From Hordeum vulgare subsp. vulgare (taxonomy: Eukaryota > Streptophyta > Magnoliopsida > Poales > Poaceae), in the NCBI RefSeq assembly GCF_904849725.1, contig NC_058518.1, positions 415,531,081-415,595,080 on the forward strand: DNA of 64,000 nucleotides, written 5' to 3'. A program made the translations under genes and the position numbers. The notes beneath the pieces were generated by a model, which saw nothing but the letters and a program-made list of their open reading frames with translations, had not been told where the DNA came from and made no database searches. Shown piece after piece: positions 45,576-64,000 of the stretch; position 1 is the first letter of the stretch, and each line of letters opens with the position of its first letter.

Positions 45576-47147
45576 ATGAAAGCCTTCGAGTCGTCGTCCA
45601 TCACCGTTGAGGTCAGCCATGCACCAAATCCTATGCCAAATCTTGTCGCCGTCCATGTCACGCCCAAGGTTGTTCAACCCTCGTCCGCGCCACCCTGTGA
45701 GTGGCAGGGCAGCATCGTCGTCCAGGACGGCTTATCCATAGCCCCCGTCGGGCAGGCACGCATGCCCGCCGCCTTCGCAGCGGTCGGCGCTATGATTCCT
45801 CCGAGGCACGCGTCGGTTTGGAAAAGGCAAGGTCTCAGGTCTAAAACGCAAGAAGCTGGTCGCAAGAGCAACCCTGCCAACGCCGCATCCAACATGTTCG
45901 ACGAAATGGGTGCAAGGTATGAATTTTTTTCTTTGTTCACCATTTACATTTGTTTGTGAATTACTGGTCGTAATTGTCGGGGGGCTTTCACAATGCGACT
46001 GCCGAGTTTGTGCACTTATTGCACGACAACACCGTCGGCATCGAGCAAGCACTGATCGGTTATTATGGTTACAATGTGTCAAATGGTGACGTGCACGATC
46101 ACACTGAGGAAAAAGATGGGATAATGAAGGTTGACAAGGCGACGTTCGACCAAAAGCAAGCCAAAAACGGTGCAAGATCCAAGAACTACACGCCATTGGA
46201 AGATCAAATCTTCATCAAGGCGTGGGAAGTTGTGTCTCTTGATGCGACGATCAGCACGGACCAAACCGGTAAGAGGTATTGACAAATGATAGAGGATCAA
46301 TTCCTTGCGAAGTATCCCAATAGAACACCGGGCACCTTATGTCTCTTCAAGGTCGTTGGGACATCATCAAGCCGGTTTGTAGCCGTTGGATTGCTTGCTC
46401 ACAACAAGTCCGCAATGCACCACCAAGTGGCACCGTTGAATCATACTATGTGAGTTCTTTCTCACATTGTACTTTAAATATTTGAAACATTTTTCATATG
46501 TTGGCATTGTTCTTGTTTTGTAGGAAAAGAATACGCGAGAAAGGTATAAGGACATGGAAGCTTCATGTGGTAGGTCATTCAACCTAGAGCATTGTTGGAA
46601 ATTGCTTCAACATAGCCAAAAGTGGAAGTTGATTGAGAAAAAAAAATCCCCACTGAAGAAAGTCCCACTCACCGAGATGGATGATGATGAAGAAGTTGAT
46701 GATAGCCCAAGAAACAAGAACAAGACGCATGAAGACAACAAGGCCATGAACAAGATCAAGAGGGAATCAGAGGCATCAAGCTTACGCGATAAGATAGATA
46801 TCATGATGCAACCAAATAAGGTGTTGGTGATCAAGACACTGGAGATGAAGAAGAAGTTGGCCGAGAAGAAAGCACAAGAGAAGCAAGAAAAGTGGATCTT
46901 ACTAAAGGAAGAGGGGTTGCACAAGACCACCATTGAGGAGAGGAAAGCCCTTATCAAGGAAAAAAGGTCTTTGGCCAAGCTTCTTACGGAGAAGAACAAG
47001 ATCATGACAATGAACCGCAATGGAATGGACGACATCACTAAAAAATGGCATGATATGGCAAGGAAGGAAATCTTAAAGAAAGGGATGATGGACGCAAGGT
47101 TAATGGCTTCGATGAGTGGGGCAATGTGTGACGGTGATGGAGAGTGA
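45576..47147 (+). pseudogene. PIF/Harbinger ORF1 (Myb/SANT-like, NAM-associated C-terminus) pseudogene
   Basis: Three exon-like parts. The first starts at ATG 45,576 and runs to a GTATGA donor near 45,917. The second (about 45,975-46,448) holds a SANT/Myb-like stretch (NYTPLEDQIFIKAWEVVSLD, then TDQTGKRY). Here a TGA replaces the expected Trp codon at about 46,280, and a frame change follows near 46,340. An intron with GTGAGT donor (about 46,449) and TTTTGTAG acceptor (about 46,523) leads to a 208-codon exon. That exon is Lys/Glu-rich and coiled-coil-like (EMKKKLAEKKAQEKQEKW), as in the NAM-associated C-terminal domain of plant Harbinger ORF1 proteins. In the family this protein binds the element's ends and partners the transposase. 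Confidence 0.7.
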
Positions 47148-48285: not shown

Positions 48286-48434
48286 CTTCTTTCGTCTCAG
48301 TTTGACCAACTATTACAAAAATATATATTTAGATGTTTTATTTTTTAATAATATAATTTTATGTTAAATAATATATTTTACATAAGTTTTTATTTTTTTA
48401 ATGATATAATTTTAGTTAAATAATATATTTTATA
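48286..48434. mobile_element. Possible truncated Stowaway-like MITE with internal duplication
   Basis: CTTCTTTCGTCTCAGTTTGA after a TA resembles a Stowaway end, but no opposite terminus is found before the next MITE. The interior is AT-rich, with two copies of an ATATAATTTTA(TG)TTAAATAATA unit. Confidence 0.35.
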
Positions 48435-48586
48435 CTCCCTTCGTTCCAAAATATAAGACCTTATGAGTGAATCTATACTCTAAAATATGTCTATGTACAT
48501 CCGTATGTAGTTTATAATACAATCTACATCCGTATGTAGTTTATAATACAATCTCTAAAGGGTCTTATATTTAGGAACGGATGGGA
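48435..48586. mobile_element. Stowaway (Tc1/Mariner) MITE with internal tandem duplication
   Basis: Ends CTCCCTTCGTTCCAAAATAT and GGAACGGATGGGA form imperfect inverted repeats, bounded by TA at 48,433-48,434 and 48,587-48,588. A 29-bp unit (ACATCCGTATGTAGTTTATA...) is present twice in tandem at about 48,497-48,555. Confidence 0.8.
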
Positions 48587-48970
48587 TATAAGTTAAATTC
48601 CCTATACACGTGAATGTCTTCTAAACTGTGTAAAGTAATGTATTTATAGATGATGGTACGGTGACGGCGACAGTGATAAATTGTTCGAAACATGTAAGTG
48701 ATAGCAATCCAGCATCCAATTTTTGTTCAGGGACAGTTGATTATGAGTAATTCTAGGAAGAATCAAAAACTAAAACGAACTGGGCCTTAATCTCATTGCA
48801 TTTAAGATCCACGAATCAGGCATCAACAACACGGGGGCCGATCTGGAGGCGCTGAACGAGTTTGTGTTACAAGCAGGGAGCGACCAGATCGGACAGAATT
48901 TTACATCAGAACATCTCGACGTCATGACAGACCAGATCCAACATGCCGCAGGGACGGAACCCGGGTGCTA

Positions 48971-49338
48971 CTATTTCTTGCCGGCGGCGTTCTTCTTGGC
49001 GTCGTCGGCCCCCTTCGTTGCCTGCGCCGCCTTCTTGGCGGTCTTCTCCTGCAGCGCCTTGGCGTCCCTCTCTCGTCGCTGCTCCGGCGTGAGCCCGTCG
49101 TCGCGGCCCTTGCTCCCCGGCTTCCGCGCCTGCGCCCTCTGCCTGTCCCGCTCCCTCTGGTCGCCGCGTGCAGCCGCCAGCCCAGGTCAAGGAACAACAC
49201 GTACAGAACAGAGAAGTACAGATCCAACCAGAACACGCATACGGTAACAACGAAAAATATAGAATTTTCGACAGGGATCAATGAAACTAGATGAATCAGA
49301 GAAGGCAATTTTTATTCGCGGTGAAGGATATGAGTCAT
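48971..49338 (-). CDS. SERF/4F5-family small charged protein (67 aa), one U12-type intron
   Basis: The coding sequence is 49,338-49,332 joined to 49,167-48,971 on the minus strand. It gives 67 residues starting MTRGDQRERDRQRAQARKPG, then a DDGLTPEQRRERD block and a Lys/Ala-rich tail ending AAGKK. The MTRG start and QRERDR region match the conserved N-terminus of the 4F5/SERF family. Those are small, disordered, highly charged proteins; animal SERF/MOAG-4 promotes amyloid aggregation and binds nucleic acid, and the plant role is unclear to me. The frame closes only if the 164-nt intron is removed at AT-AC borders. GC-rich codons, a CT-rich 5' leader and lack of any lesion suggest a live host gene, the only one I see. 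Lys and Arg are placed throughout as in the family. Confidence 0.85.
49168..49331 (-). other. U12-type AT-AC intron in the SERF-like gene
   Basis: The 5' border ATATCCTTC matches the minor-spliceosome donor consensus. TTCCTTGAC (49,194-49,186) is a perfect U12 branch-site consensus, with the branch A 19 nt before the AC acceptor. There is no GT donor after the start codons and no AG at the acceptor. The intron lies between C and GC of the third codon (phase 1) and joining restores MTRG. Confidence 0.85.
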
Positions 49339-49523: not shown

Positions 49524-49704
49524 GGCGCCGAATAAATAAAAGGAGGAGATAAAAGCGGAGCCGTCCATCCAGCCAATAGGGCGGTGCGTGTGGGCGACGC
49601 GAACTCGGTGCGCGTCATGTGGTACTTTCCCTGTTCGTATCCGCGGCGGCCAGGAATTCTCTAGGACATCTACTAATGGCTTATTTCCTAAGATCACACA
49701 CTAA

Positions 49705-50272
49705 GGCCTTGTTTGGTACAGTACTAGTGTATTTTAGAAAATTTATGGAGATTATTCCGATCAAATCCCTCAATCCCCACCAATCCCATAACACCATTTG
49801 ATTCTAGTGTATTTGACATGTTTCATCCTCACATTTCTTTTTAAATCTTTAAATTATAGTGCATTTTTCTCAATACACAATACACTATCCCTACCTAATG
49901 TATTGGGGATAAATGGGGATTTGAAGGGATTGGATGAAGGTTGGTGTTTCACCCAATTCATTGGAGGATTATCTCCACCAATCTCCTCAAAAACACTAGT
50001 ACTCCCTCCGGTCATTTTTACTCCGCGTATTAGATTTCGGTCTAGTCAAACTTTGCAAAGTTTGACCAAATTTATATTAAAAAATACCAATATCTACAAT
50101 ACCAAATATATACATTATAAAACTATATTTCGTAAATAATCTAACAATATTGATTTGGCATGATGAATGTTCATAATTTTTTCTATAAGTTTAGTCAAAA
50201 TAGAGATACTCTGACTTCACACAAAACTTATATGCAGACTAAAAAGGACCGGAGGGAGTACCAAACAAGGCC
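49705..50272. mobile_element. Tourist-like (PIF/Harbinger) MITE, split by a Stowaway
   Basis: Inverted repeats GGCCTTGTTTGGTAC (left) and its complement CCAAACAAGGCC (right) are flanked by TAA at 49,702-49,704 and 50,273-50,275. About 310 bp without the nested MITE. It sits roughly 200 bp beyond the SERF-like promoter motifs. Confidence 0.85.
50002..50258. mobile_element. Stowaway (Tc1/Mariner) MITE nested in the Tourist MITE
   Basis: CTCCCTCCGGTCATTTTTA and its complement GGACCGGAGGGAG form the ends; TA duplications at 50,000-50,001 and 50,259-50,260. 257 bp, AT-rich interior. Confidence 0.88.
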
Positions 50273-50275
50273 TAA

Positions 50276-51522
50276 TTGTTATAAAAAAAGATCACCCACT
50301 AACTCCAACGAGCGATCCATTTCATTCGCTCACGTCCGTTTGGATCAACGCGGATACAAAAGTCGATTCAACGAGTTGATTCAAATAAACGCGCGTTCGC
50401 TTTTCGTCCGTAGAGGATTCATTTTCGGTCCATTTTTAAACCAGATTTGCGTCGGCACGGACATGAAACGGGCGCGCGCTCGCCTTTTGCTTCCTCCGGG
50501 CCCGCTAGTCGGTGGCCCATTGGCCTCCCCTCATCCAGCAGCAACCCTCGCCCCTTCGTCGCCGACGCTGTCGTCCATTTTTTCCGGTGACTCTGCCAAC
50601 TGTCGGCGGCGCAACATCCGCTCAACAACGCCGCCACCTCCCACGTCGCCCGCCACCATCGTCTTGCCGCCGAGGAACCGACTACTTCCCACCCCCGCTC
50701 CCCCCGACACAGCCGTGACCGCGACCAAGAAGCCGCCTCACCGCACCGGCCAGATCCTCACCGACACGCTCGTCAGACGCCGGCAGGGAAGCTAGCAGGT
50801 CCGTGCGCGCCGCGACTCCCTTCGTCGACGCCCGCAAGTTGTTCGACAGTTTGCCATGGTACAAAATGGGCTCCGCCAGCAGGTTCTTTTTCACAATTTC
50901 CTTTGCGACTTCGACGATTCGTCGTCCGATGGCGAGGAGGGGATATTGGCTGCCGTGTTCGTCCATCACCACCTCAATAGCCAGCGGTTGTTGTTCCGTG
51001 GCTCCATTTCAGGCCACCTTCCGGCCTTGAACCACAACCGAGAGAGAGGGCATCTCCTTCTTTGGAAGGACTACTTTGATACGACAAATCCGTTGTTCAA
51101 ACATCAGAAATTCCACCGTGGTGTCCGTATGAGTAGGCATCTTTTCAACCGTATTAGAGAGGGGGTGGTCGGCTACAATGACTATTTCGAGTGCAAAGAG
51201 GATGATGTTGGAAAGTTTGATTTTTTTCTCTTATCATAAATGCATTGCCGTTATTCGAATGCTTGCATACGGAGTGCCCGGTGATCTCATTGGCGAGTAC
51301 GTCCGTATGAGCGAGTCTACATGCCTAGAGTCCCTGTATAAGTTCTGCAAGGCTGTTATTGCTATGTTTGGCCCTGAGTACTTGAGAGAGCCGACTCCTA
51401 AAGATACAGTCGTCTGTTGGCAATGAATGCCAGCAGGGGCTTCCGAGTGATGCTTGGAAGCATAGACTGCATGCACTGGGAGTGGAAGAACTGCCCTTCT
51501 GCTTGGCAAGGGCAATAGAAGG
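50276..51522 (+). mobile_element. PIF/Harbinger element fragment (5' region and start of transposase)
   Basis: From about 50,300 the sequence (CTCCAACGAGCGATCC, then CACGTCCGTTTGGATC) has the GC-rich, CGTCCG-rich character I associate with the 5' region of grass Harbinger elements. It leads into a transposase pseudogene. Copia element K cuts it off at 51,522. The exact left end was not found. Confidence 0.6.
50856..51522 (+). pseudogene. PIF/Harbinger transposase (Plant_tran / DDE_Tnp_4 type), N-terminal part
   Basis: Pieces of one protein lie in three frames. The first holds KDYFDTTNPLFKHQKFHRGV and RMSRHLFNRI (about 51,068-51,165). The second holds CIAVIRMLAYGVPGDLIGEY (about 51,240-51,300) and [11 protein letters not shown]. 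The third holds [19 protein letters not shown] (about 51,452-51,510). The order and spacing are those of plant Harbinger transposases, and the Asp in GSIDCMHW is the first DDE residue. Frame changes fall near 51,210-51,235 and 51,420, and a TAG lies at about 51,516. The rest would lie beyond element K. Confidence 0.8.
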
Positions 51523-58940: not shown

Positions 58941-61499
58941 TTACATTGTAATAAATCTAACACCCATACAGTTCTGGTGTTGATCATGTTTTGGCCGTGG
59001 AAGAGGTTTAGTCAGCGGGTCTGCTACATTCAGATCCGTGTGCACTTTGCATATATTTACGTCCTCTTCCTCGGCGTAGTCGCACATGAGGTTGAAGCGT
59101 CGTTTGATGTGTCTGGTCTTCTTGTGAAACTGTGGTTCCTTTGCTAAGGCAATGGCACCAGTGTTGTCACAGAACAAGGTTATTGGATTCAGTGCGCTTG
59201 GCACCACTCCAAGATCCGTCATGAATTGCTTCATCCAGACACCCTCCTTAGCCGCCTCCGAGGCAGCCATGTACTCCGCTTCACATGTAGAATCTGCTAC
59301 GACGCTTTGCTTGGAACTGCACCAGCTTACTGCACCCCCATTAAGAATAAATACGTATCCGGTTTGCGACTTAGAGTCGTCCGGATCTGTGTCAAAGCTT
59401 GCATCGACGTAACCTTTTACGGCGAGCTCTTCGTCACCTCCATACACGAGAAACATCTCCTTAGTCCTTTTCAGGTACTTCAGGATATTCTTGACCGCTG
59501 TCCAGTGATCCACTCCTGGATTACTCTGGAACCTACCTGCCATACTTATGGCCAGTCTAACATCCGGTCTAGTGCACAGCATCGCATACATGATAGAACC
59601 TATGGCTGAAGCATAGGGGACGGAGCGCATATGCTCTCTATCTTCATCAGTTGCTGGGCACTGAGTCTTACTCAATCTCGTACCTTGTAGAACCGGCAAG
59701 AAACCTTTCTTGGACTGTTCCATTTTAAACCTCTTCAAAACTTTATCAAGGTATGTGCTTTGTGAAAGTCCTATCAGGCGTTTTGATCTATCCCTATAGA
59801 TCTTAATGCCTAGAATGTAAGCAGCTTCTCCTAGGTCCTTCATAGAGAAACTTTTATTCAAGTAACCTTTTATGCTAACCAAAAACTCTACGTTGTTTCC
59901 AATCAGTAATATGTCATCCACATATAATATTAGAAACGCCACAGAGCTCCCACTCACTTTCTTGTAAATACAAGATTCTCCAACCACTTGTATAAACCCA
60001 AATGCTTTGATCACCTCATCAAAGCGTTTGTTCCAACTCCGAGATGCTTGCACCAGTCAATAAATGGATCGCTGGAGCTTGCACACCTTGTTAGCATTCT
60101 TAGGATCGACAAAACCTTCGGGTTGTATCATATACAACTCTTCCTTAAGGAAACCGTTAAGGAACGCTGTTTTGACATCCATCTGCCAGATTTCATAATC
60201 AAAAAATGCAGCTATTGCTAACATGATTCTGACGGACTTAAGCATCGCTACGGGTGAGAAAGTCTCATCGTAGTCAACTCCTGGAACTTGTGAAAAACCC
60301 TTTGCCACAAGTCGAGCTTTATAAATGGTTACATTGCCGTCAGCGTCCGTCTTTTTCTTAAAGATCCATTTGTTCTGAATAGCCTTGCGGCCCTCAGGTA
60401 GTATCTCCAAAATCCACACTTTGTTCTCATACATGGATCCTATCTCGGACTTCATGGCTTCTAGCCATTTGTTGGAATCTGGGCCCACCATTGCTTCTTC
60501 ATAATTTGCAGGTTCATTGTTGTCTAACAACATGATTGACAAGACGGGATTACCGTACCACTCTGGAGCAGCACGTGATGTCGTCGACCTGCGTGGTTCA
60601 ACAGAAACTTGAACTGGAGTTTCATGATCATCATCATTAACTTCCTCCTCAACCGGCGTCGCAATGACAGAGGTTTCCCCTTGCCCTGCGCCACCATCCA
60701 GAGGGATGAGAGGTTCGACAACCTCGTCAAGTTCTATCTTCCTCCCACTCAATTCTCTCGAGAGAAACTCCTTCTCGAGAAAAGCTCCATTTTTAGCAAC
60801 AAACACTTTGCCCTCGGATTTGAGATAGAAGGTGTACCCAACTGTCTCTTTTGGGTAACCTATGAAGACGCACCTTTCCGCTTTGGGTTCCAGCTTTTCA
60901 GGCTGAAGCTTTTTGACATAAGCATCGCATCCCCAAACTTTAAGAAACGACAACTTTGGCCTTTTGCCATACCACAGTTCGTATGGTGTCGTCTCAACGG
61001 ATTTTGATGGTGCCCTATTTAAAGTGAATGCAGCTGTTTCTAATGCATAACCCCAAAATAATAACGGCAAATCAGTAAGAGACATCATAGATCGCACCAT
61101 CTCTAATAGAGTACGATTACGACGTTCGGACACACCATTATGCTGTGGTGTTCCAGGCGGTGTTAACTGTGAAACAATTCCACAATGTCTTAAGTGAGCA
61201 CCAAACTCGAAACTCAGATATTCACCCCCACGATCAGACCGTAGGAACTTGATCTTTTTGTTACGATGATTTTCCACTTCACTCTGAAATTGCTTGAACT
61301 TTTCAAATGTTTCAGACTTGTGCTTCATCAAGTAGACATAACCATATCTACTTAAATCGTCAGTGAAGGTGAGAAAATAACGATATCCGCCGCGTGCCTC
61401 CACGCTCATCGGACCACACACATCGGTATGTATGATTTCCAACAAGTCACTTGCACGCTCCATTGTTCCGGAGAACGGAGTCTTAGTCATCTTGCCCAT
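58941..61499 (-). pseudogene. integrase, reverse transcriptase and RNase H region of element K (one stop codon)
   Basis: One frame runs from 61,499 to 58,941 with a single internal stop at 60,059-60,057. The first 480 codons carry the integrase core. Its DD35E residues are D26 (HTDVCGPM), D89 (RSDRGGEY) and E125 (NGVSERR). The RT begins with its first catalytic Asp in QMDVKTAFLNG. After the stop, 370 codons carry the RT YVDD (residues 44-47 from the next ATG) and RNase H motifs (GYVDASF, CEAEYMA, FCDNTGAI) to the end. The stop is a single-base type change at a codon following RSIY. Copia order, with integrase before RT, is confirmed. Confidence 0.93.
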
Positions 61500-62920
61500 G
61501 AGGCATGGTTCGCACGTGTCAAGTGAATCAAAGTCAAGTGACTCAAAAGTCCATCAGCATGGAGTTTCTTCATGCGCTTTACACCAATATGACCTAAGCG
61601 GCAGTGCCACAAAAATATGGCGCTATCATTGTTAACTCTAACTCTTTTGGTCTCAATGTTATGTATATGCGTATCGCTATCAAGATTCAATATGAACAAT
61701 CCTCTCACATTCGGTGCATGACCATAAAAGATGTTACTCATAGAAATAGAACAACCATTATTCTCTGACTTAAAAGAGTAACCGTCTCGCAATAAACAAG
61801 ATCCAGATATAATGTTCATGCTCAACGCAGGCACTAAATAACAATGATTTAAGTTCATCACTAATCCTGATGGTAGTTGAAGTGACACTGTGCCGACGGC
61901 GATTGCATCAACCTTGGAACCATTTCCTACGCGCATCGTTACTTCATCTTTCGCCAGCCTTCGTCTATTCCGCAGTTCCTGTTTTGAGTTGCAAATATGA
62001 GCAACAGAACCGGTATCGAATACCGAGGCACTACTACGAGAGCCGGTTAAGTACGCGTCAATAACATGTATATCAAATATACCTGATTTTTCTTTGCCCG
62101 CCTTCTTATCTGCCAGATACTTGGGGCAATTGCGCTTCCAGTGACCCATACCCTTGCAATAGTAACACTCCGTTTCCGGCTTAGGTCCAGCTTTGGGTTT
62201 CTTCGTCGGATTGGCAACATGCTTGCTGCTCTTCTTCGAATTGCCCTTCTTGCCTTTGCCGTTTCTCTTGAAACTAGTGGTCTTATTCACCATCAACACT
62301 TGATGCTCTTTACGGAGTTCAGACTCTGCGACTTTCAACATCGCAAACAACTCGCCGGGAGACTTGTTCATCCCTTGCATGTTGTAGTTCAACACAAAGC
62401 CTTTATAGCTTGGCGGCAGTGATTGAAGGATTCTGTCAGTGATAGCTTCTTGCGGGAGTTCAATCCCCAGCTCAGCTAGACGGTTTGAGTACCCAGACAT
62501 TTTGAGCACATGTTCATTCACAGACGAGTTTTCCTCCATCTTGCAAGCATAGAATTTATCGGAGGTCTCATATCTCTCGATCCGGGCGTTCTTCTGAAAG
62601 ATAAACTCCAACTCCTGGAACATCTCAAATGCTCCATGACGCTCAAAGCGACGTTGAAGTCCCGGTTCTAAGCCATACAAGACTGCACATTGAACTATTG
62701 AGTAGTCCTCCTTACGTGCTAACCAAGCGTTCTTAACATCCTGATCAGCCGTAGCGGGTGGTTCATCTCCTAGCGCAGCATTAAGGACATAATCCTTCTT
62801 CCCAGCTTGTAAGATTAGCTTAAGATTACGAGCCCAGTCTACAAAGTTACTTCCATCATCTTTCAACTTAGCTTTCTCTAGGAACGTATTAAAATTCAGG
62901 ATGACTGTCGCGTGAGCCAT
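61487..62920 (-). pseudogene. gag-protease region of element K (frameshifted before integrase)
   Basis: From ATG 62,920 the frame runs 477 codons. Gag (UBN2-type) occupies about residues 1-245. A CCHC zinc knuckle is at C252, C255, H260 and C265. The protease site D302-T303-G304 follows, then the gag-pre-integrase zinc-finger histidines H439 and H444. Around 61,541-61,546 (codon about 460) the frame slips by one base, and the integrase C-C pair and core continue in the frame of the next feature. The break would separate the polyprotein into two parts. Confidence 0.93.
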
Positions 62921-64000
62921 GATCTACAACACAAATATATTCAAAGTGGACTTAGACTATGTTCAAGATAATTAGAGTTTAACTTAATCAAATTATTCGC
63001 TAAACTCCCACTCAAAAAGTACATCTCTCTAGTCATTTGAGTGGTTCATGATCCACTTGCACTAGCTCAAGTCCGATCATCACGTGAGTTGAGTATAGTT
63101 TCAGTGGTAAGCATCCCTATGCTAATCATATCATCTATATGATTCATGATCGACCTTTCGGTCTCATGTGTTCCGAGGCCATGTCTGCACATGCTAGGCT
63201 CGTCAAGCTTAACCCGAGTGTTCCGCGTGCGCAACTGTTTTGCACCCGTTGTATGTGAACGTTGAGTCTATCACACCCGATCATCACGTGGTGTCTCGAA
63301 ACGACGAACTGTAGCAACGGTGCACAGTCGGGGAGAACACAATTTCGTCTTGAAATTTTAGTGAGAGATCACCTCATAATGCTACCGCCGTTCTAAGCAA
63401 AATAAGGTGCATAAAAGGATTAACATCACATGCAATTCATAAGTGACATGATATGGCCATCATCACGTGCTTCTTGATCTCCATCACCAAAGCACCGGCA
63501 CGATCTTCTTGTCACCGGCGCCACACCATGATCTCCATCAACGTGTTGCCATCGGGGTTGTCGTGCTACTCATGCTATTACTACTAAAGCTACATCCTAG
63601 CAAAATAGTAAACGCATCTGCAAGCACACACGTTAGTATAAAGACAACCCTATGGCTCCTGCCGGTTGCCGTACGATCGACGTGCAAGTCGATATTTCTA
63701 TTACAACATGATCATCTCATACATCCAATATATCACATCACATCATTGGCCATATCACATCACAAGAATACCCTGCAAAAACAAGTTAGACGTCCTCTAA
63801 TTTTGTTGTTGCATGTTTTACGTGGTGACCATGGGTATCTAGTAGGATCGCATCTTACTTACGCAAACACCACAACGGAGATATATGAGTTGCTATTTAA
63901 CCTCATCCAAGGACCTCCTCGGTCAAATCCGATTCAACTAAAGTTGGAGAAACCGACACTTGCCAGTCATCTTTGAGCAACGGAGTTACTCGTAACGATG
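62921..64000 (-). other. 5' leader of element K
   Basis: No gene. On the minus strand this is the untranslated leader of the copia element before its gag ATG. No tRNA-Met primer site or LTR is reached before the window ends. Confidence 0.7.

What the first reader, a model, noticed from the sequence alone, without database searches (positions are those of the whole stretch)
49168..49331. Minor-spliceosome (U12) AT-AC intron interrupting a SERF/4F5-family gene after codon 2
The SERF-like frame has no ATG unless an intron with ATATCCTTC donor, perfect TTCCTTGAC branch site and AC acceptor is removed. Removal restores the family N-terminus MTRG exactly. All three U12 signals match and the GT-AG alternative fails. 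AT-AC introns are a small minority even among U12 introns. Placement after seven coding bases makes all production of this protein depend on the minor spliceosome.
Basis: partly seen in the sequence, partly recalled or inferred. Interest (0 to 1): 0.75.

Follow-up and report, generated by a model that had tools for sequence, protein, structure and literature searches.

The report
Conserved AT-AC intron in SERF gene
A small grass gene is split after its first seven coding bases by a rare type of intron that only the cell's minor splicing machine should remove; the intron looks real and seems to be shared by other flowering plants, so it is a tidy but ordinary member of a known class.

Summary
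On the minus strand, ATG ACT C (49338-49332) is followed by a 164-nt intron (49331-49168) with ATATCCTT at its start, TTCCTTGAC at 49194-49186 (branch A 19 nt from the intron end) and AC at its end. Joining the flanks gives a 67-aa SERF protein starting MTRG (PF04419, 43.6 bits against a cut-off of 22.3). No GT-AG junction tested gives MTRG. Further evidence comes from mis-annotated relatives whose N-termini look like translated intron. In 12 of 227 listed homologues MT is followed by HIL, which is C|AT ATC CTT read through. A CCTTRAC-compatible peptide lies 11-21 nt before the junction in 30 of 85 extended homologues, shuffled mean 4.8. No single relative shows both signals exactly. One Brassica model continues the same leader as RGSQ (spliced), two others as HIL. 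No RNA read and no DNA of a relative could be examined; the genome search did not complete.

The parts
49332..49338 (-). coding part of exon 1: ATGACTC (Met, Thr, first base of Arg)
   Evidence: sequence
49168..49331 (-). AT-AC U12-type intron, 164 nt, phase 1
   Evidence: sequence; peptides of relatives
49324..49331 (-). U12-type 5' splice site ATATCCTT
   Evidence: (start 49331); read through as MTHIL in 12 of 227 listed homologues
49186..49194 (-). U12-type branch site TTCCTTGAC, branch A at 49187, 19 nt before the last intron base
   Evidence: CCTTRAC-compatible peptide in 30 of 85 extended homologues tested
49168..49169 (-). AC acceptor
   Evidence: Arg at the junction in 87 of 98 extended homologues, Gly (expected for AG) in 1
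48971..49167 (-). exon 2 coding: rest of the SERF-like protein, TAG stop included
   Evidence: PF04419.19 SERF-like_N E 5.5e-11, residues 1-34

Best explanation
This is a plant SERF (small EDRK-rich factor, 4F5-like) gene on the minus strand whose coding region is interrupted once, by a U12-type AT-AC intron after codon 2 (phase 1). The U11/U12 di-snRNP would recognise ATATCCTT and TTCCTTGAC together, U6atac would replace U11 at the donor, and lariat formation at A49187 would join exon 1 (ATGACTC) to GCGGCGAC, giving MTRGDQ. If the intron stays in, the ATG yields only an 8-residue peptide, so productive expression needs minor splicing. The intron is probably inherited: matching donor or branch signals can be read from SERF records of grasses and several eudicot families. 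Shown: sequence signals, reading-frame logic, peptide-level conservation. Inferred: actual splicing, by the minor spliceosome (steps from general knowledge), and dependence of protein output on it.
For: Signals and frame. Pfam match. Homologues starting MTRGDQ in Brachypodium P0003, rice P0008, Setaria P0007 and maize P0010. MT followed by HIL in 12 of 227 listed homologues (Zizania, three Vitis, Lupinus, two Brassica, Eutrema, Arabidopsis thaliana, A. arenosa, Daucus, Ancistrocladus); the GT-type patterns searched gave one match, P0203, which has an unrelated N-terminus. CCTTRAC-compatible peptides 11-21 nt before the junction in 30 of 85, shuffled mean 4.8 and maximum 11 in 400; in a hand-picked grass subset 10 of 17 against 1.15 and 4. 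Brassica P0105 (AKLTTMT|RGSQ) against P0127 and P0130 (AKLTTMT|HIL), whose leaders differ at one residue.
Against: No RNA or cDNA read was examined for this gene. No relative was seen as DNA; conservation is read from peptides, with codon ambiguity. Donor and branch evidence come from different records: of the 12 HIL proteins, 5 were in the branch test and 0 of 5 passed; allowing mismatches, P0080 and P0107 come within 1 of TTCCTTRAC at 11 nt and the other 7 that could be scored need 2 or 3. Several of those models seem to be spliced elsewhere inside the intron (inference). 55 of 85 show no CCTTRAC-compatible peptide, and distances over 21 nt were not counted (P0097 would be 29). The branch test followed my having seen the pattern in some rows; related sequences are not independent; two of three searches used extended proteins as queries, so the fractions are enriched. 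One extended protein, P0162 (A. thaliana, HIL type), has Gly at the junction, as an AG acceptor would give. The closest relatives P0001 and P0002 (contigs of 785 and 615 nt) carry intron sequence, so genomic contigs or intron-retaining transcripts are in the database.
Confidence: 0.92

Rival explanations
1. The segment is removed with GT-AG borders by the major spliceosome, using the ATG at 49240 inside it or another start.
For: Three GT-AG and three GC-AG junctions keep a frame from the ATG at 49240 into exon 2. One extended relative, P0162, has Gly at the junction, as an AG acceptor would give.
Against: None of the six gives MTRG; all delete part of the conserved N-terminus. Relatives in rice, maize, Setaria and Brachypodium begin MTRGDQ.
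Confidence: 0.03
2. The locus is a pseudogene or damaged copy, and the AT-AC signals are leftover or coincidental.
For: The motif combination alone is expected about 0.1 times per window; the gene sits among MITE-like inverted repeats.
Against: Exon 2 is open to a stop; the product is 97% and 94% identical, over 97% of its length, to P0001 and P0002; the splice signals agree with those read from relatives.
Confidence: 0.03
3. An AT-AC intron removed by the major spliceosome (U2-type AT-AC class).
For: Such introns exist, for example in sodium channel genes (PMC2831892, passages).
Against: Those have G at position +5 (same passages); here +5 is C within a full ATATCCTT, with an exact TTCCTTGAC 19 nt from the end.
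Confidence: 0.02

Closest known systems
U12-type introns of the AT-AC subtype (minor spliceosome)
   Same: ATATCCTT donor, TTCCTTGAC branch site close to the acceptor, AC end, 5' position in the gene
   Different: Nothing essential; the coding part of exon 1 is very short (7 nt)
Plant SERF (4F5, PF04419) genes, for example rice Os05g0407100 (P0008)
   Same: Same protein family and MTRGDQ N-terminus; extended models in Oryza, Zizania, Vitis, Brassica and others carry donor-like or branch-like peptides at the same place
   Different: Intron sequence upstream of the branch site differs; branch-to-end distance is 19 nt here and 11-21 nt in the 30 relatives that passed a test limited to 8-21 nt

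Membership tests
U12-type AT-AC intron | ATATCCTT at the 5' splice site | tested here: met
   49331-49324; consensus as in PMC2831892 passage
U12-type AT-AC intron | TCCTTRAC-type branch site close to the acceptor | tested here: met
   TTCCTTGAC 49194-49186; 19 nt from branch A to the end, somewhat more than the 10-15 bases quoted in PMC2426677
U12-type AT-AC intron | AT and AC termini giving the correct frame | tested here: met
   49331/49168 is the only junction with spliceosomal ends giving MTRG in the range tried
U12-type AT-AC intron | conservation of the signals in orthologues | tested here: met
   peptide level only; donor in 12 of 227, branch in 30 of 85, not both in one record
U12-type AT-AC intron | splicing depends on U11/U12/U4atac/U6atac | not testable with these tools
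   needs RNA from minor-spliceosome mutants
SERF-like protein family PF04419 | N-terminal SERF-like profile above the curated cut-off | tested here: met
   43.6 bits against 22.3

The most novel reading that the evidence does not exclude
In flowering plants the SERF genes as a group, including more than one paralogue, have kept an AT-AC intron after codon 2, so that supply of this small charged protein is gated by minor-spliceosome capacity and intron retention acts as an off switch.
Probability: 0.25. Interest if true: 0.5.

Novelty: new member of a known kind. Interest (0 to 1): 0.3.

Why it matters
It adds a well-supported, apparently old AT-AC intron to a gene family for which none of the paper listings I saw described one (long listings were seen only in part). 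It also offers a reason why many annotated plant SERF proteins have odd N-termini: gene finders that do not model AT-AC introns translate the intron or invent an upstream exon (inference). The donor and branch sequences would make a simple marker for minor splicing in grasses.

Tried and rejected
Whole-genome comparison for homeologues and retrocopies was tried eleven times with the genome search; every call came back busy and unanswered. A scan of viral contigs for related loci gave 35 pattern matches, none confirmed. Rfam at gathering scores found nothing in the window.

Papers: ten searches were made. Searches returned no paper. One search (EDRK-rich with U12) returned one, PMC4785180; the passages concern human SERF1A at the SMA locus, and U12 occurs only in a reference title. 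One search returned three, none on this topic by title. The others were seen as top rows only: 20 of 82, 20 of 183, 30 of 236, 15 of 37,178, 20 of 37, 8 of 92; the SERF, SERF2, EDRK-rich and 4F5 counts in the listed rows were 0. The Arabidopsis locus names used were recalled. I could not open U12DB, ERISdb or IAOD, which may list this intron in rice or Arabidopsis.

A test on the residue before the junction (83 of 85 able to end in A, background 70%) is weak, because AC and AG acceptors both have A there. GT-AG splicing, pseudogene and U2-type AT-AC were considered and set low (see rivals).

Full report
What is there. The finding is on the minus strand. The sequence reads GCGGCC ATG ACT C | ATATCCTTCACC ... 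GTTCCTTGACCTGGGCTGGCGGCTGCAC | GC GGC GAC CAG. Removing 49331-49168 (164 nt) gives a 67-aa protein that matches PF04419 SERF-like_N from its first residue (E 5.5e-11, 43.6 bits, cut-off 22.3). Without removal, the ATG gives MTHILHRE and stops; the SERF frame itself holds no Met.

Is it more than chance. ATATCCTT is found 6 times and TTCCTTRAC twice in the 64 kb, both strands; one combination meets the AT-AC rules used (donor, exact branch, AC 8-21 nt after the branch A, under 5 kb), and it is this one. Markov sequences give 0.1 per window (60 runs, maximum 1). The motif match alone is thus only suggestive. The junction test is stronger: among 781 junction/start combinations in the range tried that link an ATG to the SERF frame, four give MTRG, all the same product through repeated bases at the borders, and one of these has spliceosomal ends, AT-AC at 49331/49168. 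In-frame junctions with other usable ends are 3 GT-AG, 3 GC-AG, 12 AT-AG and 3 further AT-AC; none gives MTRG.

Relatives. Three protein searches found 415, 476 and 513 homologues and listed 120 each, 227 distinct in all; unlisted ones were not examined. Of the 227, 111 have Met plus Thr, Ser or Ala directly before the conserved block, 98 have a different upstream sequence, and 18 did not fit the pattern. The extended ones are useful because many look like intron translated by mistake.

Donor. In 12 of all 227, MT is followed by HIL, as expected if C|AT ATC CTT is read through: Zizania, Vitis (three), Lupinus, Brassica carinata, B. napus, Eutrema, Arabidopsis thaliana, A. arenosa, Daucus and Ancistrocladus; by recalled taxonomy these are six families. 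Three of the 12 (P0138, P0176, P0207) are among the 18 that missed the pattern. The same script looked for GT equivalents (R-I-L/F/S/P and R-K/V/E/N) and found one, P0203, which on inspection has an unrelated upstream sequence. In Brassica the leader ending AKLTTMT, differing at one residue, continues as RGSQ in P0105 and as HIL in P0127 and P0130, with an identical protein from GSQ onward. That comparison marks the exon 1 boundary, although all three are annotated models.

Branch site and acceptor. For 85 of the 98 extended proteins (4 with fewer than 6 upstream residues and 9 with a residue other than R or S at the junction were dropped), I asked whether the peptide could be encoded by CCTTRAC with its branch A 8-21 nt from the intron end. 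30 of 85 could, against a mean of 4.8 and a maximum of 11 in 400 shuffles of the last nine residues. For 17 grass proteins, picked by hand from organism names or the grass-type RGDQ block after I had seen their peptides, 10 could, against 1.15 and 4. With the full TTCCTTRAC the figures are 11 of 85 against 0.9 and 5 of 17 against 0.19. The other 55 of 85 could not. Against the reading: of the 12 HIL proteins, 5 entered this test and none passed; P0080 and P0107 (Vitis) come within one mismatch of TTCCTTRAC at 11 nt, and the other 7 that could be scored need two or three. So donor and branch are supported by different records; some HIL models are probably spliced inside the intron. Arg at the junction (87 of 98) means, where exon 2 begins GC as here, that the intron ends in C; an AG acceptor would give Gly, seen once (P0162). 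Where the codon could be AGA or AGG this is ambiguous; two Dillenia proteins have Ser, which would point to A as last base.

Paralogues. Oryza P0133 has the RGNQ block, unlike the RGDQ of this gene's type, and shows SSLT 18 nt before the junction; P0138 and P0162 are Arabidopsis proteins with clearly different SERF sequences and both show MTHIL. So the intron seems to predate some duplications, as an inference from peptides.

Meaning. AT-AC introns are 13-26% of U12-type introns in maize, rice and Arabidopsis (PMC7367187 Table 2, passages). U12 introns are concentrated in 5' portions of human and Arabidopsis genes (PMC2426677, part 1 of 3 of the text read; repeated as an earlier result in a passage of PMC10639083). 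AT-AC ones convert to U2-type less often (PMC2831892, passages), which fits an old intron persisting at codon 3. On the other side, PMC7367187 and PMC10639083 report low conservation of U12 positions between human and Arabidopsis (8 of 93, and 5.5%; passages); I made no test outside plants. PMC4785180 was seen as passages; all other papers in search listings only.

Noticed in passing
58941-62923 minus strand: Copia-type LTR retroelement coding region (gag, integrase and reverse transcriptase Pfam matches), in three abutting or overlapping open frames.
   Followed up: partly
46524-47147 plus strand: Open frame with a NAM-associated C-terminal domain (PF14303, E 4.1e-8), about 1.8 kb from the SERF gene.
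   Followed up: no
49698-50279: Nested inverted repeats starting about 360 bp upstream of the SERF ATG: 22-nt ends 91% complementary enclosing 114-nt arms 71% complementary, MITE-like.
   Followed up: no
48422-48599: Another MITE-like inverted repeat (39-nt arms, 79%) downstream of the SERF gene, containing a 29-nt tandem duplication at 48493-48550.
   Followed up: no
public SERF records: 98 of 227 listed plant SERF-like proteins have an upstream sequence other than MT/MS/MA before the conserved block; many look like translated intron or unrelated upstream exons, perhaps because the AT-AC intron is not modelled. The set is enriched for such cases by the queries.
   Followed up: partly
P0099 and P0135, Dillenia turbinata: Serine in place of arginine at the junction, suggesting an intron ending in A (possible non-canonical U12 terminus).
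   Followed up: no
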